This document shows positions 31,500 to 52,948 of a stretch of DNA of 64,000 nucleotides, piece after piece. The stretch is taken from assembly GCA_903813345.2 (NCBI GenBank), contig CAIIXF020000004.1, positions 26,599,985-26,663,984 of the forward strand, read 5' to 3'. Both the position numbers and the translations under genes were made by a program. The notes beneath the pieces were generated by a model. The model had not been told where the DNA came from and did no database searches. It saw nothing but the letters and a program-made list of their open reading frames with translations. The stretch is from Owenia fusiformis (Eukaryota > Annelida > Polychaeta > Sabellida > Oweniidae). Numbering within the stretch: the first letter of the stretch is position 1; each line of letters opens with the position of its first letter.

Positions 31500-31596
31500 A
31501 GATTACTTAAAGTAAAATGAGACAATCGACAATTCAGAGTTCAGGTTTCAATCGTCCGGTCGAGATCTCCGAGTTACAATTCGCAGATGTTTTAAC
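31500..31596 (+). promoter_or_regulatory. conserved 5' flank of lectin copy 1
   Basis: Matches 45585-45669 upstream of lectin copy 2: 'acaatcgacaattcagag' against 'acaattgacgattcagag', 'caatcgtcc', 'cgcaga'. The similarity runs directly into both ATGs, so it is the duplicated 5' UTR and perhaps part of the promoter. No TATA box is assigned. Confidence 0.55.
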
Positions 31597-34500
31597 ATGT
31601 CGGCGGGTCACATTTTCTTGTTGGTGACGGGAGTGTTGGTGGCAAATTCTATTGCAGAGTATCGAGACATCGATCGAAATAGTCCTCGAGGTCAGTTTTT
31701 TGACTTTATATGTTTATAGTTTAAAAGGGGTCAATGCCCAACTCTGATATTTGAATACACCAAATTCAACATTTCGATGTTTGGTTTCTTCATTTTAAAG
31801 AAGCGATTTAACATGGGATTCAATCATTTTAAAGAAGCAATTTAACATTGAATTCAATCATTTTAAAGAAGCAATTTAACATGGGATTCAATCATTTTAA
31901 AGAAGCAATTTAACATGGGATTCAATCATTTTAAAGAAGCAATTTAACATGGGATTCAATCATTTTAAAGAGGCAATTTAGCATGGGATTCAACCATTTT
32001 AAAGAAGCAATTTAACATGGGATTCTATGATTTTAAAGAAGCAATTTAACATGGGATTCAATCATTTTAAAAAAGCAATTTAACATGGGATAAACCATTT
32101 TAAAGAAGCAATTTAACATGGGATTCAATCATTTTAAAGAAGCAATTTAACATGGGATTCAATGGAAGGAATAAACCAAATGAGAACCTTTAGAAATCAA
32201 GTTCGGTCATTTTACAGGTTATTTAAAATTAAAAGGTTTTATAGAATTTTGTGGTTTTATTTTTTACAGATTGCATGTTATTCACAAACTGGCGCTACCA
32301 GGGAAAATCCCGGAGTAAATTCATTTGGAAATTCGAGGATTGCCGCCAAAGTAACGTTCAAACACTCTGTGAACGACGGAAAGATGCATCAGGTATTAAT
32401 AAAACGTTGATTTATAATTGTCGTTGGAATAAATTAAATAGCGAATAGCAGCTAACGTCTTTCATACAGTGTTACACGAAACTACACAAAGTTGATTAAA
32501 TCCTGGGATAACATTACTTCATGCTTTCAGCTTCGTTTGTACAATTTTCAGGAAAATGTCCAGAGGATTTCCCAATGGCTATTGGAGACAGTTGCTACTG
32601 GTTTGATTTGACTCCAGTATCGCATAATACCGTGAGACCAAAATGTGCGCGTAAGGGAGGAGATATCGCTGCTATCGACACACCAAGGGAGGCACGAGAA
32701 TTGGGAAAACTACTAGCAGCGGTACCCGATGCGGGATTTTCGAGCTTCAAAGAATTCCGAATAAAATATTGGACTGGTAGGTACAAACTAAGAAACTTCA
32801 TTTTCATGCCAAGTAATCAGGGATCAATACCTGGCCGGTATTCAGCGTTCATTTTTCGGCGTCTGTAACATCGTTCGGTAGTCGGCACCTGAAAAAATGG
32901 CAGGTAGTGACATTTTGCATGTTCTTGCCTTGTTTCATTTTGATTTGTTGGGCAATGCTTGCAAATCGGGATTCTGTGTCAAGCCGGAAGGAGTGTACGT
33001 TTTTGAATGGCATAAAATAATCAAGAATCCCGTCAAGAATAAACACAAGTCCAACCTAACCAACGCCCTCAACATATTCCCGAGATTGAATACCCGGCTT
33101 CTTGACTTAGTGTAGTGCTACACTGAACGAAAAACCATTGATTTGGTCATTGTAGGATACAAGGAGTATGTGAACCAACAAGAGGACCGTAAATGTGTGA
33201 TTCTCACAAACAGGAGGAACAAACACAACAACCCCGGGAAATTCTATAAAACTAAAGAGAGTTGTGACGGCATGTCCCAATTACTCTGTGAGATGGACAT
33301 TCCATCAACAGGTGAGAACCTAATAAAGAGCTGCATGGAAATCCATGGCAACCATGTCTGTTACACTAAATATTTCTTCCAGTTTAATTTATTGTTTTAT
33401 GATACTATACATACTGTATTTCCCGCTTCATTTTGCACATGCAACTTGGATTAGAGGGGACGACTGCAAGACCCGATATTTTTATGAGATAATTTAATTC
33501 TTTCCGATGGAAAAGGAAATCAAGATTGCCCCAGTTGTTGATGTCTATTTATGATGATGATTTCACACTGATGGTTTCTATTAAGCTTACTTCTAAGACG
33601 GTCTTTTCCACTATATTTATACATTATTTAATTTTGATTTAATTAAGGTACATGCCCTGATGGTTTCAACGACTTCCAATTGGGTGGTTCGTGCTACATG
33701 GTGGACTTTGCCTTCAATGAGCACGACAGGAACAGCATGTTCTGTAGGGTTGCAAACGACGCCGGCCATCTTGTTCGAGTTGGTTCAAATTTTGAGAAAA
33801 TCGGGGAAGAACTTTTAAAGCTATCTAACTTTCCCAAGGGTTCAACTGTTGAGTTCACTCTTGAGAACTCCAACCCCAGGTACTTATTTATGTCATTTTT
33901 TGCTCTACTGCCCACAGTAAGACTCAAGACTGCAGCTAAAGTACCATAAAATATATGTTCTCGTCAACTTAAATGCCAAATGTGAAGTTTCAAATTTTAT
34001 CATTTAAGTGTGTCTTACATGAGGAAATGATGTAATCGGTTTTTAATTTCCATATCACAGTACAGGAAAAGGTATTGTCTAGGATTGAAGTTCAACGTCT
34101 TCATTTTGAATACGTTGACAAGCATTGAGTGGTCTCTGCGTAGAAGGTAAGGATCCCCTTGCCGTCAATAACGCTGAATAGTCGATTACGTCACTTCCTG
34201 TCAAAATCTTTAAGATTACAGCATAGTGCCAATAATAACTGATTTTTGTTCAATTTTCAATTTCGATCATGTTAAATATTCTCGACTATTTTTACATTTA
34301 TTTGTAAGTATACGAGGGTTGTCCCAGAAGTAATGCACTATATGCTCTAACTTGCTTTAATATTCCTCAATTCAGCTGAAATTTTGTGTATAATACAATT
34401 AAAGTTTTATTTGTTATATCCTGAAGTTTCAGCATCAAACATTAATATTAAGTCTTAATATGGTTGTTATAGCAACATGGGGGTAGGGGTGGGCGGGGCA

Positions 34501-38591: not shown

Positions 38592-39536
38592 TTACAGTAC
38601 ATTAAGAACCTTATTACAAAATGAATCGTTTTGTTTCACCACTGGCTTATTATAAAATTTTCTGAAACACGACTCGTTGCTCCAACCAGCTGTTTTCAAA
38701 ATGCATTCAATGTTAAGTCCATTTCGACTTGCTGCAGAAACAGAAGCACTTCTTGTGCTGTGGGGTTTGAAAACTTTTGTATCAATACCAGATTCTGTTA
38801 AAACTGTTTTAACCCATCTACTCAAAGTATCCTTCGAAACAGATTGATGGGGTTTTATAAAGCTTATGAACAAACTTGTACATTTCCCTCTTAAAGGCTC
38901 AGTTCGTTCACAATAGGTTTTCAATGTTCTATATACACAAATACTTGGATCTATATATTTTTCTAGTCGTACAACTGGGTTTTTAACTCCCGCCTTAGAC
39001 TGTTTAATGTTCTGGTTTATAGTAAAAACAAAACAGTTCTCCTCAGAAATGAGGTTTTCAATGTCCAACAAGGCCAATGTTTGCATTCGTTGTGCTGTAG
39101 TAAGTGCTATCAATGTTACTAGTTTCAGAGATAAATCACGTAATGTTAATTTTTCCAGCGGAAACAAAAGTTGAAGGTGTCTTAAAACAATTGAAACGTC
39201 CCATATTGATTGATACCTAGGTTTAGGTGGATTCGAATTATATACACCTTTCATAAAACGAATCACAAGTGGGTGCTGTCCAAATGAAATATTTCCGTCA
39301 TAGATAAATGATGATAAGGCACTGCGTGCTGTATTTATCGAGCTGTAACTTAGAGTTTCTTGGTGTAAACTAACTAGGAAGTCCAACCCTATTTGTATAG
39401 ATGGGTGAAGGGGATCAATATGCCGTTTAGAGCAGAACTGAACCCATCTTTTGATGTAGACATTGTATTGTTTTTGGGACTGTGGTCTCCATGATTGTAC
39501 GATAACGTCTGTTGCTTCCTTAGAAACTCCTTGGTT
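38592..39536 (-). CDS. DIRS tyrosine recombinase
   Basis: Integrase of the lambda/Cre fold that joins the circular DNA to the genome. Counting from the Leu at 39386, the catalytic residues are Arg100 (TTAQRMQTL), His209-x-x-Arg212 (PHSTRSAS), Trp235 (TAGWS) and nucleophile Tyr245 (KFYNKP). The open frame extends upstream to 39536, where it begins after a TAA, and includes the typical N-terminal DNA-binding segment (W-VQFCSKR-IDP). No ATG precedes that segment, and the frame overlaps the RT frame by 148 bases in -1 register. Expression as a fusion by frameshifting or from spliced RNA is likely. Confidence 0.88.
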   Translation of the reverse strand, partial: NQGVSKEATDVIVQSWRPQSQKQYNVYIKRWVQFCSKRHIDPLHPSIQIGLDFLVSLHQETLSYSSINTARSALSSFIYDGNISFGQHPLVIRFMKGVYNSNPPKPRYQSIWDVSIVLRHLQLLFPLEKLTLRDLSLKLVTLIALTTAQRMQTLALLDIENLISEENCFVFTINQNIKQSKAGVKNPVVRLEKYIDPSICVYRTLKTYCERTEPLRGKCTSLFISFIKPHQSVSKDTLSRWVKTVLTESGIDTKVFKPHSTRSASVSAASRNGLNIECILKTAGWSNESCFRKFYNKPVVKQNDSFCNKVLNVL

Positions 39537-41590
39537 TTATAAGATTTCCCGGACAATGAACATGCTACGATGGTCATTTTTCCCATCAAAGGGTGGTGAA
39601 CACCGGGTTTGTGAGGAAGTCCCAGCAATGTCTTCCGACGTGGTAATACTACTGGGTTCGATACCAGCAGGCTCAGTAGCTTTGGCCACCAGGGTTGCGT
39701 CGGCCAGAAAGGTGCGATTACTATTGCATCTGCTTGGTCTTGTTGAATTTTCCGAAGAACAGGCATGAGGAGACTGAAAGGAGGGAAAGCATACATTACA
39801 TCATTGTTCCAACATATGGAAAATGCATCAACAAATTGTGCGTCGGGATCTGGCCTCCAGGACACGAACTTCTCAAGTTGAGCATTTAATCTAGAAGCAA
39901 ATAAATCAAGCGTTGGCGTTGGAAATTCACCTATTCTACATATCATGGTAAAGACATGTTTATCCAACGTCCACTCTGTTCCATCGTGAAACGTTCTGGA
40001 TTCGTGATCAGCTTCGATGTTACTGATACCTGGTATATGAGAGGAAGATAACCAAATATTTCTACATATGCACCATTTCCAGATGGTTTTTGATAAGATG
40101 TTACATTTCGTAGATTTAGTACCTCCCATGTTGTTGACATACGTCATAGCCGTCGTATTGTCTGTTTGGACCCTTATATGTATGTCCCTATACGACCTAC
40201 AAAATGCTTTCAACGTTAAGTAAATTGCTAACAACTCAAGGTAATTGATGTGATTAGTGGATTCATCAATAGACCATCTTCCACCAGTCTTTACATTATT
40301 TTTCACATCAAAACCACCCCAGCCTTCATTACTGCTGTCACTACGAAACGTTAAGTCAGGATCTGTAACAGAGATAGGGCTTTTAGACGATCTGACATTG
40401 CTAATCCACCAATTGATTTCATCGATTGCATCCTGGTTAAGATACATTTTCGCGTCAAAATTGCCAAAATTTTGCGTTAATGCATTGCTTTTTTGGATTT
40501 CAAGGTGACGGTAGTATAACTGACCAAACCTAACCCCTTGGAAAGAAGCAACCATTTTCCCAATTAATTTTGCAACTTGACGTATAGTAATGTTGTCTAT
40601 GTGTCGGATGGTATCAATACACAATGAACGCAAGGCTTCTGTTTTGTCATATGGTAATTTTATTTCCATAGTATTTGAATTTATTTCAAACCCAAGAAAC
40701 TGTACCTTTTGTGAAGGGATCAAGTCACACTTTTCTGGATGAAGAATGAAACCAAGTGTCTGCAGTTGGTGTATAGTATCAGCAATATTGTATTTACATT
40801 CCTCGTAGGTATCTGCAAATAGACACGTATCGTCAATGTAAGCCACAGACTTTCTACCCTGGTTTCGCAATTTTGCATAGACTGGTTTCAAAATCTTTGT
40901 GAAAATACGAGGGGCAGAACATAAGCCTTGTGGTAGACAAGTGTATTGATATATTTTACCCTTCCATTTAAATTGGAGGTATTTCTGAGAATGTTCAGAC
41001 ATGGGTATACTATAGTAACTGTCTTTGATATCACAGGTGGCCATATAACAATTTTTGGTGACAAGATTTGTGGCATTTTGAAATGTTTCCATCTTGAAAT
41101 GATGATACACAATATGCTCGTTTAATGGTTTTAAATTCAGAATAGTCCGCTTGGACCCATCACGCTTGGGTGTCAGAAAAATGGACGATAAATATCCTAT
41201 TTCAGAACAATCAACTTGTTTCAAAATACCCTTATTCAAGAATTTCTCGATCTCATGATCTACAGCCAAGCATTCCGAATCAGAAAAAACCATTGGACGA
41301 CAATCGGTACACGATGGTATGTTGTTAACGTCAACAAATTCAATATCATAACCTTCAATTATTTTGAGAATTGTTGGGTCGTTAGTGATATTTTTCCATT
41401 CATCATAGAAATATTTCAATCTGCCACCTTCGAACAAATTTAACTGAGATCTAAGTGAATTTCTTACCTCAGTAGGATCAGTTGTAGCTATTTGCTTTGC
41501 TGATTCTCGTAATCTTGAGACTGGCCTCTCTTCTGAGATTTGCCTCTTCCTCTTCCGCGTTGGGAGTTGTTTTGCTGGGAATATCCCCAT
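39389..41590 (-). CDS. DIRS reverse transcriptase, RNase H and methyltransferase-like domain (733 aa)
   Basis: Copies the element RNA into DNA. The ATG is at 41590. The reverse transcriptase spans about residues 100-310, with LNLKPLN at 151-157, Asp187 in CDIKDSYYS, LPQGLCSAPRIF at 219-230 and the catalytic YIDD at 251-254. RNase H spans 413-535 with Asp418, Glu452, Asp477 and Asp528 as likely metal ligands. Residues 557-645 (PTLDLFASRLN, VDAFSICW, FPPF, IVIAPFWP) match the Dam-methyltransferase-like domain typical of DIRS elements. The frame overlaps gag (41488-41590) and the recombinase frame. All core residues seem intact. Confidence 0.9.
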   Translation of the reverse strand: MGIFPAKQLPTRKRKRQISEERPVSRLRESAKQIATTDPTEVRNSLRSQLNLFEGGRLKYFYDEWKNITNDPTILKIIEGYDIEFVDVNNIPSCTDCRPMVFSDSECLAVDHEIEKFLNKGILKQVDCSEIGYLSSIFLTPKRDGSKRTILNLKPLNEHIVYHHFKMETFQNATNLVTKNCYMATCDIKDSYYSIPMSEHSQKYLQFKWKGKIYQYTCLPQGLCSAPRIFTKILKPVYAKLRNQGRKSVAYIDDTCLFADTYEECKYNIADTIHQLQTLGFILHPEKCDLIPSQKVQFLGFEINSNTMEIKLPYDKTEALRSLCIDTIRHIDNITIRQVAKLIGKMVASFQGVRFGQLYYRHLEIQKSNALTQNFGNFDAKMYLNQDAIDEINWWISNVRSSKSPISVTDPDLTFRSDSSNEGWGGFDVKNNVKTGGRWSIDESTNHINYLELLAIYLTLKAFCRSYRDIHIRVQTDNTTAMTYVNNMGGTKSTKCNILSKTIWKWCICRNIWLSSSHIPGISNIEADHESRTFHDGTEWTLDKHVFTMICRIGEFPTPTLDLFASRLNAQLEKFVSWRPDPDAQFVDAFSICWNNDVMYAFPPFSLLMPVLRKIQQDQADAIVIAPFWPTQPWWPKLLSLLVSNPVVLPRRKTLLGLPHKPGVHHPLMGKMTIVACSLSGKSYKTKEFLRKQQTLSYNHGDHSPKNNTMSTSKDGFSSALNGILIPFTHLYK

Positions 41591-42708
41591 TGATAGTTGC
41601 TGCGTCCCTGGCCTTGGTATAAAAAATGGTTCTGGGAACGCCCTCTACCACGTGAACGACCTCCACGTCCTCTAGCACCACGGTTATTTCCTCTTGATTG
41701 AGAAAATACTGATCCTCGAACTTGAGCTTTGTTCATTTCAGCGATATCCTTTACTTGTTTTGTAACATCATCGCCAAATAAATACTTGGTTACTGATGCA
41801 GATTTGTCACACAGGTGCTTGAATCCTTGTGCTATTTCCGGTTTGAATAATTCCCGGCGCCTCATGTTCAATTTGTAGTTGGCTTGACACGACATTTGTA
41901 TGCTATCATATAACATCAGACCAATTTTTCCAAATTGGTCTTCATATTCGTCAGAATTAGTTGCCAACTTAGATTTGATTTGATCCAGTATTTCTAATGA
42001 TTTCGTGGCAGCCACTATAGCACTTATGATAGGCTTCTGAGCCTGTTGTAGTCGTACATCACTGGTACGGAGATCATATGAAACCCTTGACCATATTTGT
42101 TCATTAACCTTTGCAACACAGAGTAAAGGTGCGTTATTTGGAGTTTTATAAGTGTCATGTTTAGATTTTTCATCATCTCCATCCAAGTTGGTTTGAATCA
42201 ACTCATTCACTAAAGAAGCAGCTGCTGCTGCAATCGGTGGACCTTGGTCCTCCTGAGGTTTTATTTGAGATTTAAGTTGTTTCATAAAATCCGACATAAC
42301 AATTTCGTTATCACTCGAATTGCTGGCTTTTGATTTCTTAGATGGAGGTTGAGAACTTTCACTGTCCTCATCATAATCATACTGATCTTGATCATATTCA
42401 TCATCATTATCATTGAACGGATTGTCCTCCTCGAGAGAGTTTGGATTTTGCCTCATTGCATCTTTAATGTCCTTCAATGATGACGACATTATGTCAGCCA
42501 TAGAATCTTTCATAGCGTTCATTCCACTTGTGATGGCATTTGTTAGGCTTAGGAAATCATCCTTACCTACATGAGCTATATTAGCATCTTTCTTAGAATT
42601 TGTTTTAGATTTTGATTTTGATTTTCCTTTTACATCTGAAGATTTTGGCAAATCAAGGAGACTTTCTTCGGTCTCCATATCTATATCTCCGAGTTGAGAT
42701 TGTGCCAT
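41488..42708 (-). CDS. DIRS gag-like protein (406 aa)
   Basis: First frame of the element, starting 566 bases inside the right end. It has an acidic and Lys/Ser-rich N-terminus (KGKSKSKSKTNSKK), an acidic stretch (NDNDDEYDQDQYDYDEDSES) and a central Leu-rich part. The tail of about 60 residues is rich in Arg-Gly (GRGGRSRGRGRSQ), suited to nucleic-acid binding. There is no CCHC knuckle. It overlaps the RT frame by 103 bases in the -1 register. Confidence 0.82.
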   Translation of the reverse strand: MAQSQLGDIDMETEESLLDLPKSSDVKGKSKSKSKTNSKKDANIAHVGKDDFLSLTNAITSGMNAMKDSMADIMSSSLKDIKDAMRQNPNSLEEDNPFNDNDDEYDQDQYDYDEDSESSQPPSKKSKASNSSDNEIVMSDFMKQLKSQIKPQEDQGPPIAAAAASLVNELIQTNLDGDDEKSKHDTYKTPNNAPLLCVAKVNEQIWSRVSYDLRTSDVRLQQAQKPIISAIVAATKSLEILDQIKSKLATNSDEYEDQFGKIGLMLYDSIQMSCQANYKLNMRRRELFKPEIAQGFKHLCDKSASVTKYLFGDDVTKQVKDIAEMNKAQVRGSVFSQSRGNNRGARGRGGRSRGRGRSQNHFLYQGQGRSNYQWGYSQQNNSQRGRGRGKSQKRGQSQDYENQQSK

Positions 42709-43207
42709 ATTGACTGATAAAGTCGTGTTGAGTTACACTGATCTCTTTACTATATAGTGTATTGAGAGTTTTTAGCAATCACTCAGAGCTAAGTCAGCTC
42801 GTAATTATATTCACTCAGAGCCAAGTCAGCTCGTAATTTTATTCACGCAGAGCCAAGTCAGCTCGAAAGAATTACTTCAAGCGTGATCTATAAAAACAAA
42901 ACGCTTTTCACAATGAAAGCCCAGTAAGGCTATGACCATTGGTTTATTTTGTAAAAAGTTTTCCCGCGTTTTGCGAGACAAAGAAATTCCCAATCAGGGG
43001 TAAGCTGCTATTCACACAGTAATTGAACCCCGAGTCAGGGTTATTTATTCATCAAAATATATCCAGTTAGATATATATCAATGTATTGAATGTACTGAAC
43101 ATTAGACAAGGTAGCTAAAGTCCAGGCATAAAACCGCAAAGTGAATTCTCACCTGCTGAGCAGCTCAAATGTGGAACACGTCCACCTACCTGCAAAGTCG
43201 CAATAAA

Positions 43208-44880: not shown

Positions 44881-45584
44881 AATTATGTTTGTATAACTTG
44901 GTTTGATAGTTTAAGTTTAAAATAGTTTATTTAAGTGTCACTGGTATACAATTAATACATATATTAGGACATAGTTAAAATACCACCAGCCGACGTCGGC
45001 TTATAGTCATAATGTTATGATAGTCACGATGGAAGTAAATGCAAAAATACGACTATATGTTTTTCAAAAATAAAATAGTTCGAGTTGGAGTACCTTTGGG
45101 TCAAAACCTTGTTCTAGCAATAAAATAAATCAAGTCCAAACTGAATCACTTTCCAAAATCTTAGTTCATTGAACTCAGGAGAAATTAGTAGCTCCCATAA
45201 TTCTTTGCTATTACTTGATTTCAAGGGCTTCCCCTTATATTTCCCTAGATGGTCCCACGAGCCTTATATGGATATTCAAAATGGCGGACAAAAGTAAGTT
45301 GGATTCCTATATGGCCCTATAAGCCTTATATGGATCTGTCACATGGATATCACCTGATCAGATACCAACCCGGAATTTTAGGAAACCCCCACCACCCCTG
45401 TTTGAACTCATGTAGGTCGTGCTGTACCTTGGGGATAGAGGTTCATTGATGAGCTGACATTCAAGGGCTGACATTGCTCTATACCATCCACCGTTTATGT
45501 CATTGTGCCACAGCGAGCAATGTTTACTATTCAAAACAAAGAAGATCCCCTCTATATCATAATTGTCACTAATGGGTTATTTAA
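44881..45584. other. spacer upstream of lectin copy 2
   Basis: It contains the inverted match to 36880-36965 and, at 45250-45330, repeated 'gccttatatgg(at)' phrases. No gene. Confidence 0.45.
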
Positions 45585-45669
45585 AGCAATGTCACACAAT
45601 TGACGATTCAGAGCTACAGTTGCAATCGTCCAGGCGTTTTCCTTTAGCTAAATACGCAGAGGCCTAACA

Positions 45670-46680
45670 ATGTTGACGGACGCCATATTTTGGTTGGTGA
45701 CAGGGACGTTGGTGGCAAATACTATTGCAGGTCCTGGTTAGTATGATTACTTTTACATGTTTTTCTAAAACAAGCAGAACACTTACAATGTTGACGGGGC
45801 ACATATTCTGGTTGGTGACAGGAGCGTTGGCGGCAAATACTATTGCAGGTCCTGGTTAGTATGATTACTTTTACATGTTTTTCTAAAACAAGCAGAACAC
45901 TTACAATGTTGACGGGGCACATATTCTGGTTGGTGACAGGAGCGTTGGCGGCAAATACTATTGCAGGTCCTGGTTAGTATGATTACTTTTACATGTTTTT
46001 CTAAAACAAGCAGAACACTTACAATGTTGACGGGGCACATATTCTGGTTGGTGACAGGAGCGTTGGCGGCAAATACTATTGCAGGTCCTGGTTAGTATGA
46101 TTACTTTTACATATTTTTCTAAAACAAGCAGAACACTTACAATGTTGACGGGGCACATATTCTGGTTGGTGACAGGAGCGTTGGCGGCAAATACTATTGC
46201 AGGTCCTGGTTAGTATGATTACTTTTACATGTTTTTCTAAAACAAGCAGAACACTTACAATGTTGACGGGGCACATATTCTGGTTGGTGACAGGAGCGTT
46301 GGCGGCAAATACTATTGCAGGTCCTGGTTAGTATGATTACTTTTACATGTTTTTCTAAAACAAGCAGAACACTTACAATGTTGACGGGGCACATATTCTG
46401 GTTGGTGACAGGTGCGTTGGCGGCAAATACTATTGCAGGTCCTGGTTAGTATGATTACTTTTACATGTTTTTCTAAAACAAGCAGAACACTTACAATGTT
46501 GACGGGGCACATATTCTGGTTGGTGACAGGAGCGTTGGCGGCAAATACTATTGCAGGTCCTGGTTAGTATGATTACTTTTACATGTTTTTCTAAAACAAG
46601 CAGAACACTTACAATGTTGACGGGGCACATATTCTGGTTGGTGACGTTGGTGGTAAATACTGTCCAATATGAAGATTTAC
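45670..46680 (+). repeat. 118-bp tandem array of the signal-peptide exon (9 copies)
   Basis: ATGs stand at 45670, 45788, 45906, 46024, 46142, 46260, 46378, 46496 and 46614, exactly 118 bases apart. The first eight each encode a 22-residue signal peptide followed by CCTG and a GTTAGT donor, in phase 1 with exon 2. Copies 2-8 differ by only one or two bases. The last copy is altered (GTGACGTTGGTGGT) and lacks the donor. The unit contains 46 or so bases of the next copy's 5' side and a 'ttttctaaaacaagcag' stretch that could serve as an acceptor. Confidence 0.93.
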
Positions 46681-49600
46681 ACGTTTAGGATTTAAAGGGG
46701 CTCGTGCAGTGTCTAACTCTGCTACCAAATACACCAAATTAAAAGCGAATCAATAAATTATATTGACATCAGTATGTTTTAATATAAATCTTATTTTCTG
46801 TAAATAGTTTTCAATTTCAAAATTGGGTTGTTCAATTTAACAAAGTACAGTCAATATAAGGAATATAAACTGGACCTGTAGAGAGGAGCATGTACTCATA
46901 TTCATTCAACTTTTCTATAATTGCTCGCTTTATTTTTTACAGATTGCTTGTTGTTTACAAACTGGCGTTACCAAGGAGAATCTCGTAGTAAATTTATTTG
47001 GAAGACTGAGAAATGCCTACAAAGTACAGTTCAAACGCTGTGTGAACAACCGAAAGATGGATCAGGTAATAGAAAATTGACTGGTACAGGTTATACAACT
47101 ATGTAACGACTGAATACAAGATCGAGAATAAATTAAAAAAAAATTATATTCATGAAGGAAAAGGGCTATATACCACATACACTCCCCTCCAAAAAGAAAA
47201 TCCAGCTAATTTCACTAAAAAATGCAAAGGCCATCAACGGGGCCATGTGCTATGTAAACTGGTCCACTTTTATTAAAAAGACCACGGAGAACAAAAATGA
47301 ACAAAGTAAATGCTTGTTTTGTAGTTGGTTATGCCTGAGTCACATTTTCGCTGATTCATCGACCGGCGCCAGCGCCCGTCCGATTGAGTATTTCGTTCAA
47401 AATTGTATGTTCTCCAAATCCTATTTTGTGACAGTTTTTTTCAATGATATGTGAATTAGACCGGCACCAGCGCGCGGCCGATTGAGTATTTTGTTCAGAA
47501 TTGTATGTTCTCCATATCCTATTTTGTGACAGTTTTTTTCAATGATATGTGAATTAGACCGGCACCAGCGCGCGGCCGATTGAGTATTATGTTCAGAATT
47601 GTATGTTCTCCATATCCTATTTTGTGACAGTTTTTTTTAATGATATGTGAATTTAGTTTGATATTTCACAATACCAACAATTCAATTTCATCTATTTTAA
47701 CTTAGGGTAAGAGTAAATTTTAGGCATGAAATAACGTGACCAAATATGCAAGTTCTTCAATCATTACATCACTGACCTCCTGTTCTTTGAACAATTTTTA
47801 GGCGAAAGACAGAGGATTTCACGATTGCAATTACATCTCATCTTCTGTACTTTTTTCAATTTTAGGCGAATGTTCGGAGGATTTCACGATGGCTTTCCAT
47901 AACACCTTCTGTTCCTTACACAATTTTAGGCGAATGTACATGTACACGCACAGAGGATTTCACGATGACTATTACATCACATCTTCTCTTTCCTTACAAT
48001 TTTAGGCGATTGTCCAGCTGATTTCCCAATGGCTATAGGAGACAGTTGCTACTGGTTTGATTTGACTCCAGTAGATCACGACGAAGTGAGTGAAATATGT
48101 GCGCTTAAGGGCGGAGATATCGCTGCCATTGACACACCAAGCGAGGCGAGAGAATTGGGAAAGCTACTTGCAGCGGTACCCGATGCAGGATACAAGAATT
48201 ACAAGGAATTCAGAATAAAACATTGGACAGGTATGTACAAATTAAACTACATGTGACAAAATCATTTCTCGGGAAATTATTACCTGTGCTTATAAGTGAT
48301 TGGTAGTGCAGGTTGCCTAGACAAAAGGCCTTTTGTATTGTTGTTGCTTAAAATGGAAAATCAAGTAAGTACAGTAATCAGTAAAACGATGCTAAAGCAA
48401 TCGCACATACGGCTGGTTTCGTTTTGATTAAGGAAAAGTAAAATTTCATTTTGATTTCTCTACCAATACTTGCAATCCGGTGTCATTCATGCCAGAAAGG
48501 AAAATTTTGGAATAGGTCAGAATAATCAAAAATAAAATCAAGCCAATGCTCCTCTACATCCGAAGATTGAAAATAGTCAAGCTATTTGAGTAGCGTACGT
48601 TGTTGAAACGCAACACTGGACGAAAAACCATTGATTGACTCATTGCCCCTTTAGACCCAGAAAACGACTTTTGCATATGTGCTCTTATTTATTTTTATTT
48701 ATTTATTCGTGCTAGGCCCTATTATTGTATTCCATTTATGTTTACTACCGTTTCATACCGTTATAATTACATACCCTACGGAAAAAATAGATAAATAAAT
48801 AAAAATTCCAGGATACAAGGAGTATGCGAACCAACAGGAGGATTGCAAGTGTTTGATTCTATCAAACTATAGAACCAAAGTGAGCGACCCCGGGAAACTC
48901 TATATAACTAGAGAGGGTTGTGACGGCCTGTCCCAATTACTCTGTGAGATGGACATTCCACCATCAGGTGAGGACTGGCAAAGGGCCATTTTTTATTCTA
49001 TATTTATGTTACACTTACATGTACTACATTTATTTCTTGTTGAATAGATATGTTATTGTACTTTTGCACATTCTGTAAATTAAATTTTTCTATCAGAATA
49101 TTTTGAAACGAAAAATGGAATCAGATTATGGGAACTTTGTTATTGATCATTCCCTCCTTCGCTGATGTTTTCGATTGCCCTTGGGCACGTCCGTCCGGGG
49201 TACTAGACATGAAAGGGAGTGTGCTAAATTCAATGCCCGGTGTGGGGTTCGAACTGGATCATTGACTTTAGCACTCTCCCTTTCATTTCTAGTATATGGC
49301 TTGGGCTGGCCCGTCACACTCCAGGTCCCCGGGCGGAAGTGCCCAAGGGTCGTTATACAATTAACCATTTAATTGGGCGGTTATCAATTACCAATATGCA
49401 AGTTCAGTGAATTTAAAGATTTCTGATTTTGTAGTTTTCGCTACATCTAATTATACTTTAAATCTAATGTTAGTTTAATAGAGGAATTTTAATCTTGCAA
49501 GGACAGGACTCATACAAGGGTTTTAACCTGGAGTCCGCCCATGCCTGGTATACACTAAAATTGACAGCATACTTGGCTTCAAGAGAAACACATGGAGACC

Positions 49601-50204
49601 CGACGACGATTCAATTATTTCATTTTAATTTAATTAAGGTGTATGCCCTGATGGTTTCAACGACTTCAAAGTTGACGGCTCTTGCTACATGGTTGACTTT
49701 GCCTTCAATGAGCACGACAGAAACGACATGTTCTGTAAGGTTGCAAATGACGCCGGCCATCTTGTTCGAGTTGATTCAGATTTTGCGAAAATTGGGAAAG
49801 AGCTTGTAAAGCTACCCAACTTTCCGAATGGATCAACTGTTGAATTCACTCTCGAAGACCCTGCGACAGGTACGTATTTGTGTAGATTTATTTCACGTGT
49901 TGTGAAATTCTCTAGCCTCTATGTGCTTTAATAAAAGTGCAACCAAACAATATTTTCTCATACAAAATTTGAAACATATCCTCATATCAATTCTCATCAC
50001 TTTAAGAAATCTTTGATCATTTTTCATAAAAAAAGTAAGTGACTCATTTTTTTAATTTTTTAATTATATTTAATAAAATCAAAAACGACTAGGCCTTTGG
50101 TTTGATTCGTGCAATTATTAGTAACCAAGATTGTATTTTCTTTTATTTAAGGTCCTATACCACAGTCATGTGCACCGCCGGAGCCTGATAACTCTAACCA
50201 ATAA
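45670..50204 (+). CDS. secreted C-type-lectin-like protein, copy 2 (six exons)
   Basis: Tandem paralogue of copy 1. Exons: 45670-45736 (or one of seven further versions of exon 1, see the array), 46943-47065, 48006-48230, 48812-48967, 49639-49869, 50152-50204. Exons 2, 3 and 4 have the same lengths as in copy 1 (123, 225, 156) and every junction is phase 1. The product has a signal peptide (IFWLVTGTLVANTIA), half a lectin domain (DCLLFTNWR..KCLQS..TLCE), a full domain (CPADFPMAIGDSCYWF..IAAIDT..HWTG with GCDGLSQLLCEMD), a second N-terminal half (CPDGFNDF..SCYMVDF) and a short tail (QSCAPPEPDNSNQ). No canonical sugar-binding triplet is visible. It probably acts outside the cell in recognition or defence. 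Confidence 0.82.
47362..47660. repeat. 98-bp tandem repeat derived from the 140-bp MITE family
   Basis: 'Accggc(g/a)ccagcg' starts at 47362, 47460 and 47558. The first copy is preceded by 'tgcctgagtcacatttt', the end sequence of the MITE at 13232 and 50382, and contains its 'ccgattgagtattt' core. The other MITE end is missing. It lies in intron 2 of lectin copy 2. Confidence 0.8.
47800..48005 (+). repeat. three degenerate duplicates of the exon 3 splice acceptor
   Basis: Before the true exon 3 (48006) three copies of its start occur: 'tttttaggcgaaagacagag' near 47807, 'ttttaggcgaatgttcggag' near 47862 and 'ttttaggcgaatgtacatgt' near 47925, each followed by 'gaggatttcacgatg'. Each carries a polypyrimidine tract and AG. 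The coding similarity lasts about 30 bases and then decays, so these are decoy acceptors or remnants of exon duplication. Confidence 0.8.
49165..49372. repeat. foldback element with tRNA-like core in lectin copy 2 intron 4
   Basis: The outer arms are 'ttgcccttgggcacgtccg' and 'gcggaagtgcccaagggtcg'. The inner arms are 'ctagacatgaaagggagtgt' and 'actctccctttcatttctag'. The centre carries 'aattcaatgcccggtgtggg', also present in the tRNA-like repeats at 22612-23188. Opposing ORFs are shadows of the palindrome. Confidence 0.75.
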
Positions 50205-51355: not shown

Positions 51356-52325
51356 TTAAGTAAATTGCGAAATCTCTCTAATATCTGCTAGTTTAACCTA
51401 AAGACTATTTTTTGATGAAGTTTCTTTATTAATTAGGCCATCTAAATTGGTGACGTTTCCCAGTGTTCGGGTGCAGTGTTGTGGTATAGGATCAAAATAG
51501 TCACTTTACATTTAAGCTGTACTTATAGCTGATATAATATTATTTGTTCAATCTTAGGTCAGATTTGAGCCCCTGAGAACTTGTAGGTAATTTTTTAGCT
51601 GGTCAATTTGGAGCAAGTTGCAAAAAAGCCCTTTGACCTTGTTAATGTCATTGAAGGTCAAATCTTAAATCTGGTAAATGGTTTTTAAAGAAATTAAATC
51701 AGTCTTATCAGTATTTTTTAAGTTATTTGAAGTTGTAAGATTTTTTAAAGACGCCAACCTTCAACCGCCACCCGTTAGACACCAACCGCCGTCACAAAAA
51801 CGGAGACCATAACAATATGTCACCAATTTTTGGTGTTTGGTGGTGACATAATAGACATTGTTTGTCTTTTAATCTTAAACTGATTAGACCGTATACATTT
51901 TCCATTCTCATTGAGAAGGTCATTCACGATAAACCATAACACCTCATTTCTTCTCAGCCCCGAGATGTTTCAGGTGAAACAGAAAGATGGTATGAGTATC
52001 AGAATGAAGGTTAACGCTTAAAAGTGACACCACCCCGTATTCCTTGAATGGACCCCAGGGCCGTGTACATAATAACTGTATTTCTTTACTTTATAACCCA
52101 GCCCTCAAGACATTCCATTACAATACGTTTAAAACTGACCACATCATATAAAAACAATGACAAAAGGGAAAGGAAAAACAAACATTAAAAAAGGAATATT
52201 GAATAACTTGAAAACCAATACAAGCCCCAATATCCTTATCAATTAATACAAATTATAGAAGTGAATTTATGATGATCATAATCATCATAAAAGTCATCAT
52301 AAAATATCGATGTTATGTTTTTCAG
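51356..52325. other. spacer or intron before the vWA exon
   Basis: No coding exon is seen. It includes 'gatgatcataatcatcat'-type simple repeats at 52270-52305 and ends in the acceptor 'gttatgtttttcag' at 52312-52325. Confidence 0.5.
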
Positions 52326-52948
52326 TGTGCGCCGACATTGTCTTTTCATTTGATATATCGTGTTCGATTGACGCGACAAATATCACGGCGGCGTTGAACA
52401 TTGCCAAGGATATTAGTTTGAATTTGACACTCGACTCACTTAAAGGCTCAAGAATTAGTGGGTTCAGCTATAACGCCGATGTCGTAGATTCATTCTCAAC
52501 TGGCGAACCGGACGATAACCCATCAAATGTTGTGAAGCTGTTATCTGATCTAAAAGTCACTCCTGATACCACTGACGAATGCAGAACAAGGACCGATGTT
52601 GCATTTAATAAAGTAATTGCTACCTTGGCAACACCGAACGACAGGGATGACGAAGCCTATCGCGATGTTGTAATTTTCTTCGGAGATGGCAGAACTTCTC
52701 CTTTGAGGCACCGCCCAGCTGCAATTAAAGCTGCCGAATCAATACGTGACAACGGTGGTGTTGTTATATGGATAGTACTGACCAGTAACCGAGGGTTGAT
52801 TAAGGTTACTGATGGTATTGAAAATGAAATTAAGAACGTTACCTCGGAGGATCCATGTACAGGGGAAAAGTTGATATTCTATCATGACGATCCATTTGTA
52901 ACTCGAAGAATTCTCGGCTTTCTCGACCAAGCCGCTGGTTGTGTTTAA
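52326..52948 (+). CDS. von Willebrand factor A domain, terminal exon
   Basis: The exon begins after an AG acceptor in phase 1 and ends at a stop (52946-52948), about 207 residues. The domain starts CADIVFSFDISCSID, where DISCS fits the MIDAS D-x-S-x-S metal site. It continues with SGFSYNADVV, TRTDVAFNKVI, VVIFFGDGRTS (second metal Asp), GGVVIWIVLTS and ends in a helix FLDQAAGCV. The Cys pair near both ends could form a disulphide, as in extracellular vWA domains. No start codon or signal peptide belongs to it, so upstream exons must exist. The nearest phase-1 donors are those of lectin copy 2, so an alternative 3' terminal exon of that gene is possible. Otherwise a separate gene has unseen 5' exons. 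Confidence 0.78.

What the first reader, a model, noticed from the sequence alone, without database searches (positions are those of the whole stretch)
45670..46680. A signal-peptide first exon with its splice donor amplified into a near-perfect 118-bp array
Nine ATG-initiated copies of exon 1 of lectin copy 2 lie exactly 118 bases apart. Eight keep an open signal peptide and a GTTAGT donor in the correct phase for exon 2. Copies 2-8 are almost identical, so the expansion or its homogenisation is recent. The paralogue at 31597 has one copy. This could provide multiple start sites, raise transcript dosage, or vary the leader peptide. If each copy has its own initiation region, the array is a set of interchangeable first exons; if only the outermost promoter is used, the inner copies are dead weight inside intron 1.
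Basis: partly seen in the sequence, partly recalled or inferred. Interest (0 to 1): 0.85.

Follow-up and report, generated by a model that had tools for sequence, protein, structure and literature searches.

The report
Tandem array of a lectin-like first exon
In what is probably a marine worm genome, the short first exon of a secreted lectin-like gene, with its start codon and splice signal, is repeated head-to-tail eight times; only the outermost copy has a recognisable promoter, so the rest are probably spare splice sites inside the first intron, much like arrays known from amphioxus and human genes.

Summary
The array is real: eight complete 118-bp units from ATG 45670, plus a ninth (46614) that has lost the GTTAGT donor. 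Copies 2-8 are identical except for one substitution each in copies 4 and 7. Each complete unit carries an open signal-peptide exon and G|GTTAGT in the phase of exon 2 (8 of 8). The genome is probably an annelid, Owenia-like.

The unit is about 20-25 nt of 5'UTR, the 67-nt coding exon and about 30 nt of intron 1. The only core-promoter candidate found (TTAYTTAAAG, then TCAGAG 31 nt on, conserved with the paralogue) lies upstream of copy 1 and is absent from the array. So the inner copies are unlikely to be self-starting first exons; most likely they sit in intron 1 as extra splice donors.

The same gene has a second, degenerate array repeating the intron-2/exon-3 acceptor boundary. Boundary-spanning arrays are described already: amphioxus 'mirages', human CBS. 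What looks new is a unit holding a whole ATG-to-donor exon, outside chordates. No transcripts were available; donor use is inferred. Verdict: new variant of a known kind, moderate interest.

The parts
45577..45586 (+). TATA-like element TTATTTAAAG, the only core-promoter candidate found; 93 nt before the ATG of copy 1
   Evidence: matches TTACTTAAAG at 31503 in the paralogue; the only two TTAYTTAAAG on the + strand of the window, both with TCAGAG at +31; transcription start not measured
45608..45613 (+). TCAGAG, initiator-like site (inferred transcription start region)
   Evidence: same 31-nt spacing in the paralogue, 31534
45670..45736 (+). exon 1, copy 1 (coding part): MLTDAIFWLVTGTLVANTIAGP + first base of the next codon; donor GTTAGT 45737-45742
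45788..46562 (+). exon 1 copies 2-8 (ATG at 45788, 45906, 46024, 46142, 46260, 46378, 46496), each ending at a GTTAGT donor
46409..46417 (+). extra donor-like site CAG|GTGCGT made by the copy-7 substitution; GT starts at 46412; phase 1
   Evidence: highest-scoring donor in 45600-46942 with a recalled consensus matrix; phase
46614..46680 (+). copy 9: truncated, GTTAGT lost, continues into original intron 1
46943..47065 (+). exon 2
   Evidence: AG/GT bounded, 123 nt, dN/dS 0.14 to the paralogue
47361..47653 (+). 98-bp x 3.0 minisatellite in intron 2, overlapping no exon of the model
47791..47940 (+). second boundary array: about 64-bp units repeating the intron-2 acceptor and the start of exon 3; exon-like starts 47802, 47866, 47930
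   Evidence: TRF; blastn E 1.6e-17 and 4.3e-12 to the true boundary; positions; reading on from each of the three meets a stop
48006..48230 (+). exon 3 (lectin-like)
48812..48967 (+). exon 4
49639..49869 (+). exon 5 (looks like the first half of a second lectin-like domain, by eye); later exons not modelled
31597..31690 (+). single-copy exon 1 of the paralogue (94 nt, donor GTCAGT)

Best explanation
This is a minisatellite born from tandem duplication of a splice boundary, of the kind called a 'mirage' in amphioxus. A stretch from about 25 nt before the start codon to about 30 nt into intron 1 was duplicated. It then expanded and was homogenised, most likely by unequal exchange or slippage, which left the two edge copies divergent. 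Transcription starts at the single promoter upstream of copy 1. By default the cap-proximal donor (45737) is used and copies 2-9 leave with intron 1, so the protein keeps one signal peptide. Occasional use of an inner donor would keep the reading frame and a signal peptide, but would put upstream start codons in the leader and so yield less protein. Shown: the array, the unit content, reading frames, donors, edge divergence, and a promoter candidate only at copy 1. Inferred: the transcription start, which donor is used, and the mechanism of expansion.
For: Unit anatomy by comparison with the paralogue. The promoter-like pair with conserved 31-nt spacing is upstream of copy 1 and absent from 45670-46680. 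Copy 9 has lost GTTAGT and continues into intron sequence shared with the paralogue. Copies 1 and 9 are divergent and copies 2-8 near identical, the pattern described for amphioxus globin mirages (PMC3087553, passages). The same gene has a second array across an acceptor boundary. The gene looks functional: dN/dS 0.29 over exons 2-4 against the paralogue. Upstream ATGs in transcripts that use donor 2 to 8: 1, 4, 7, 10, 12, 15, 18 (taking transcription to start at 45607).
Against: No transcript, start-site or long-read data. Copy 1, the presumed working exon, is further from the paralogue (14 of 60 sites) than the inner unit is (9 of 60). Of the 8 sites where copy 1 and the units differ, copy 1 is the changed one at 6 and the unit at 1, with 1 unclear. 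That is not what one expects if only copy 1 is under selection, although 6 to 1 is not significant (two-sided P 0.125) and signal peptides vary freely (recalled). All eight GTTAGT donors score alike and low (1.92; real donors of the two genes range from -1.04 to 8.94), and the copy-7 site scores higher (6.83), so the sequence itself does not force donor 1. In human CBS 844ins68, a boundary duplication, the more distal of the two sites is the one strongly preferred (PMC2630376, passage), so the outer copy need not win.
Confidence: 0.77

Rival explanations
1. Donor-competition rheostat: from one promoter, several of the eight donors are used; the further donors give leaders with more upstream ORFs, so array length sets how much lectin-like protein is made and changes the leader (with or without a 15-residue N-terminal extension).
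For: All eight donors are intact and in phase; for donors 2-8 a second in-frame start 45 nt upstream adds MITFTCFSKTSRTLT (MITFTYFSKTSRTLT for donor 5). In human CBS, more repeats of a 31-bp unit at the exon 13/intron 13 boundary were found to go with lower enzyme activity (PMC5188458, a review, passage).
Against: Published amphioxus cases suggest regular splicing despite duplicated splice sites (PMC3087553 and PMC3902484, passages). No RNA was examined here.
Confidence: 0.15
2. Interchangeable first exons, each with its own start site, as in clusters with one promoter per first exon.
For: Each of copies 1-8 has an ATG with A at -3 (by eye), an open signal peptide and a donor.
Against: The conserved TATA-like and TCAGAG elements are absent from the array. 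Only 51 nt lie between one donor and the next ATG, most of it homologous to intron 1 or the 5'UTR. A TATA-less or degenerate promoter is not excluded.
Confidence: 0.05
3. Assembly artefact: the true locus has a different number of copies.
For: Near-identical short tandem units are error-prone; one amphioxus mirage was aberrantly assembled in a draft genome (PMC3087553, passage).
Against: Copies 4 and 7 carry private substitutions and copies 1 and 9 are divergent, so several copies are very probably real. The array is about 1 kb, which one long read would span; how this assembly was made was not established. Exact copy number remains untested.
Confidence: 0.03

Closest known systems
Amphioxus 'mirages' (Adh3, globins BflGb6/BflGb9, TnC, PGBD5)
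   Same: Minisatellite-like tandem units spanning an exon-intron boundary, including splice signals; donor or acceptor side; homogenised inner units with divergent edges (BflGb6); PGBD5 has arrays overlapping two exons of one gene (PMC3087553 and PMC3902484, passages). My look-up by PubMed id for the original Adh paper, an id recalled from memory, found nothing held.
   Different: The host here is probably an annelid, and the unit holds a whole coding first exon with start codon and the end of the 5'UTR; in the passages read the units hold parts or boundaries of internal exons.
Human CBS 31-bp VNTR (exon 13/intron 13) and 844ins68 (intron 7/exon 8 duplication)
   Same: Repeats across splice boundaries, one on the donor side and one on the acceptor side of the same gene; VNTR number varies between people (PMC2630376) and is reported to go with enzyme activity (PMC5188458; PMC1395315; passages only).
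   Different: Short unit late in the gene; no start codon or signal peptide in the unit.
Earthworm metallothionein genes
   Same: Annelid; minisatellites in the first intron, and fourth-exon duplications in one clone that are not in the final transcript (PMC12783039, passages).
   Different: In the passages read, no array with a start codon and splice donor in each unit is described.
Alternative first-exon clusters with one promoter per exon (protocadherin, UGT1A; recalled)
   Same: Several first exons upstream of one common exon 2.
   Different: There each variable exon has its own promoter and its own sequence (recalled); here the units are near identical and no promoter was found in them.

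Membership tests
Mirage (boundary-spanning minisatellite) | tandem array whose unit spans an exon-intron boundary with its splice signal | tested here: met
   118-bp unit with exon, GTTAGT donor and intron start
Mirage (boundary-spanning minisatellite) | inner units homogenised, edge units divergent | tested here: met
   copies 2-8 differ by 0-2 sites pairwise; copy 1 by 8-9; copy 9 truncated
Mirage (boundary-spanning minisatellite) | regular mRNA despite the repeats | not testable with these tools
   no transcript data
Mirage (boundary-spanning minisatellite) | length differs between alleles or cells | not testable with these tools
   one assembly; one place found in it
Mirage (boundary-spanning minisatellite) | found in a cephalochordate (lineage of the described cases) | tested here: inconclusive
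   probably not met: PF16915 annelid linker domain, 3 matches over the cut-off; one of them matches haemoglobin linkers in the PDB weakly, best E 0.0025, beside an unrelated chain at 0.03; size fits Owenia. Species not fixed. A lineage criterion, not a structural one
Alternative first exons with own promoters | promoter upstream of each first exon | tested here: not met
   TTAYTTAAAG, TCAGAG and TATAWA absent from 45670-46680; divergent or TATA-less promoters cannot be excluded
C-type lectin domain proteins | match to the CTLD profile (PF00059) | tested here: not met
   no PF00059 hit for exon 3 or for the joined proteins (best other hit DUF7808, below its cut-off); weak PDB matches to C-type lectins, best E 0.0086 and 0.029, so 'lectin-like' only

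The most novel reading that the evidence does not exclude
The array is a heritable splicing and translation dial: one promoter, eight competing in-phase donors, a stop codon built into each donor (GTTAGT read as GGT TAG), and upstream ORFs that grow in number with each donor skipped, so that array length tunes secretion of a lectin-like protein and can change fast by unequal exchange. A bolder form: the inner units, which keep more of the ancestral signal peptide, are the exons normally used, and copy 1 is decaying.
Probability: 0.13. Interest if true: 0.8.

Novelty: new variant of a known kind. Interest (0 to 1): 0.42.

Why it matters
It suggests that boundary-spanning minisatellites are not a peculiarity of amphioxus, and shows a form in which each complete unit is an ATG-to-donor exon. 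With eight near-identical donors in one transcript it is a natural test of how the spliceosome chooses between equal 5' splice sites, and of whether array length changes protein output. With a second array at an acceptor of the same gene, it also offers raw material for the proposed route from boundary repeats to new introns (PMC3087553, passages).

Tried and rejected
Own-promoter first exons: rejected as the leading reading because the array lacks the conserved promoter elements. Dispersal in the genome: the DNA search found this place only. Amphioxus as source: considered because of the mirage literature, dropped after the annelid linker hit; COX1 gave no match, so the species was not fixed.

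Inner copies as cassette exons: a GCAG before each inner ATG could act as an acceptor, but inclusion gives an early stop in the 3 of 7 inner complete copies translated (copies 2, 5, 8), and the candidate branch region lies very close to the AG (by eye), so judged unlikely.

Are such arrays common here? Edge-repeat test on 60 loci: 30 of 148 Lectin_C matches and 30 of 161 trypsin matches; in both searches only 150 of more than 500 candidates were scored. 6 of 60 were flagged. Looked at one by one, 4 are neighbouring whole CTLD exons of one cluster (L019, L022, L024, L027; by coordinates) and 2 are in-frame collagen-like coding repeats (L020 read; L044, its neighbour, judged by likeness and not translated). 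I dropped these six and count no short boundary array in 60. The test found both arrays of this gene (exons 1 and 3; 2 of 5 modelled exons) and none in the paralogue (0 of 5). Fisher P about 0.005 is post hoc and treats related loci as independent. Limits: exon ends of the 60 loci were only approximated from open frames, their first exons were mostly not in view, and many trypsin matches cover the domain in one open frame and may lack introns. TRF on 37 loci, L008-L044, and self-BLAST on the same 37, with eight stretches inspected, gave one possible case (L021), not resolved and not flagged by the edge test.

Bacterial promoter scan has no bearing on an animal gene and was ignored. Donor scores used a matrix recalled from memory, not a trained model. 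No structure prediction was run.

Literature: ten searches. Those on boundary arrays or tandem first exons (5, 20, 33, 42, 43, 57, 61) listed no annelid first-exon array; coverage is open-licence papers only, and the one paper listed was seen as a listing only.

Full report
What is there. The array is confirmed. Eight complete 118-bp units start at ATG 45670 and a ninth, truncated one at 46614. Units 2, 3, 5, 6 and 8 are identical; units 4 and 7 have one private substitution each; unit 1 differs from the consensus at 8 sites, all within the exon, while its 51 intronic bases are identical to those of unit 2. Each complete unit codes MLT(GH or DA)IFWLVTG(A or T)L(A or V)ANTIAGPG and then TAG, the TAG being part of the donor GTTAGT. 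Splicing at G|GTTAGT joins exon 2 (46943) in frame in 8 of 8 cases.

Unit boundaries. Alignment to the single-copy paralogue (ATG 31597) shows that the left part of the inter-exon segment is the start of intron 1 and that its right part resembles the end of the 5'UTR. After copy 9 the sequence continues as intron 1, homologous to the paralogue's. Copy 9 has lost GTTAGT; a weaker donor-like site in it (score 1.24 against 1.92) is out of phase. The event was therefore a tandem duplication from about 25 nt before the ATG to about 30 nt into the intron. GTTT- and TAAA-containing stretches occur on both sides of the join, which may mark microhomology; this is by eye.

Promoter. TTATTTAAAG (45577) and TCAGAG (45608), 31 nt apart, match TTACTTAAAG (31503) and TCAGAG (31534), 31 nt apart, in the paralogue. 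These are the only two TTAYTTAAAG sites on the + strand of the window, and neither element occurs in 45670-46680. This is the strongest evidence that the array hangs on a single promoter. It is still an inference from sequence.

The gene. Exons 2-5 are bounded by AG/GT and keep the frame; exons 2-4 show dN/dS 0.14, 0.26 and 0.67, together 0.29, against the paralogue. Exons after exon 5 were not modelled. The protein is lectin-like only by weak evidence: no Pfam CTLD hit for exon 3 or the joined proteins, none for six related exons, of which one had a sub-threshold match to a lectin-like viral family, and PDB matches to C-type lectins at best E 0.0086 and 0.029. One search listed ten exon-3 matches in the genome: the query itself, the paralogue and eight weaker ones.

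A second array in the same gene. The acceptor of intron 2 with the start of exon 3 is repeated three times upstream in steps of about 64 bp (exon-like starts 47802, 47866 and 47930; the true one is 48006). These copies are degenerate, and reading on from each of the three meets a stop before the true exon can be read. Two of five modelled exons of this gene carry boundary arrays and none of five in the paralogue; of 60 control loci 6 were flagged and, on inspection, none of the six is a short boundary array (and see Tried and rejected). The association is post hoc and the controls are imperfect.

History of the units. Of 8 sites where copy 1 and the units differ, the paralogue agrees with the units at 6 and with copy 1 at 1; one is unclear. 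Copy 9 agrees with the paralogue at the 4 of those 6 that it covers, and at the site changed in units 2-8 it too keeps the paralogue's base. So copy 1 has changed most. This could mean weak constraint on the exact signal peptide, or that copy 1 is not the sole working exon; the numbers are too small to decide (P 0.125).

How it most likely works. One promoter, cap-proximal donor 1, inner copies removed with intron 1. If inner donors are used, the leader gains 1 to 18 upstream ATGs while the reading frame and a signal peptide survive, in two versions differing by 15 residues. That predicts less protein, not more. The copy-7 substitution creates a further donor-like site, CAG|GTGCGT, the best-scoring in the region by a recalled matrix and in phase; it would shorten the signal peptide.

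Organism. The Eryth_link_C domain (PF16915) gives 3 matches above its cut-off, one with an internal stop. The best of these, tested against PDB sequences, matches a haemoglobin linker at E 0.0025, beside an unrelated chain at 0.03. The assembly of 498 Mb, with matches reaching tens of Mb into each of C1-C12, resembles Owenia fusiformis, 505.8 Mb and 12 chromosome-scale scaffolds (PMC9977687, passages). The species is not proven; COX1 was not found.

What is known. Boundary-spanning tandem repeats are established as 'mirages' in amphioxus, where RT-PCR suggests regular splicing (PMC3087553, passages; PMC3902484, passages), and exist in human CBS at both a donor and an acceptor boundary, with repeat number reported to relate to enzyme activity (PMC5188458, PMC1395315, PMC2630376, passages). 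Earthworm metallothionein genes have first-intron minisatellites and fourth-exon duplications not seen in the transcript (PMC12783039, passages). I found no description of an array whose unit is a complete start-codon-to-donor first exon in the searches, which cover open-licence papers only. I therefore file it as a new variant of a known kind.

Noticed in passing
window 47791-48006: Degenerate tandem copies of the intron-2 acceptor and exon-3 start upstream of the true exon 3: a second boundary array in the same gene.
   Followed up: yes
window 46409-46417: The single substitution in copy 7 creates CAG|GTGCGT, a donor-like site that is in phase but would shorten the signal peptide to MLTGHIFWLVT.
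   Followed up: partly
window 38592-42732 (-): Three long minus-strand reading frames (414, 751 and 314 aa) that look by eye like a DIRS-type retroelement, between the two lectin-like paralogues.
   Followed up: no
window 52265-52948: A von Willebrand factor A domain exon downstream of the arrayed gene, possibly its 3' part; no second copy found in the window.
   Followed up: partly
L021 1360-1473: A 54-bp duplication that seems to contain a tiny exon with AG before it and GTAAG after it; a possible further boundary duplication (by eye).
   Followed up: no
window 31790-32163: The paralogue's intron 1 holds its own 34-bp x 11 minisatellite, unlike any exon by eye.
   Followed up: no
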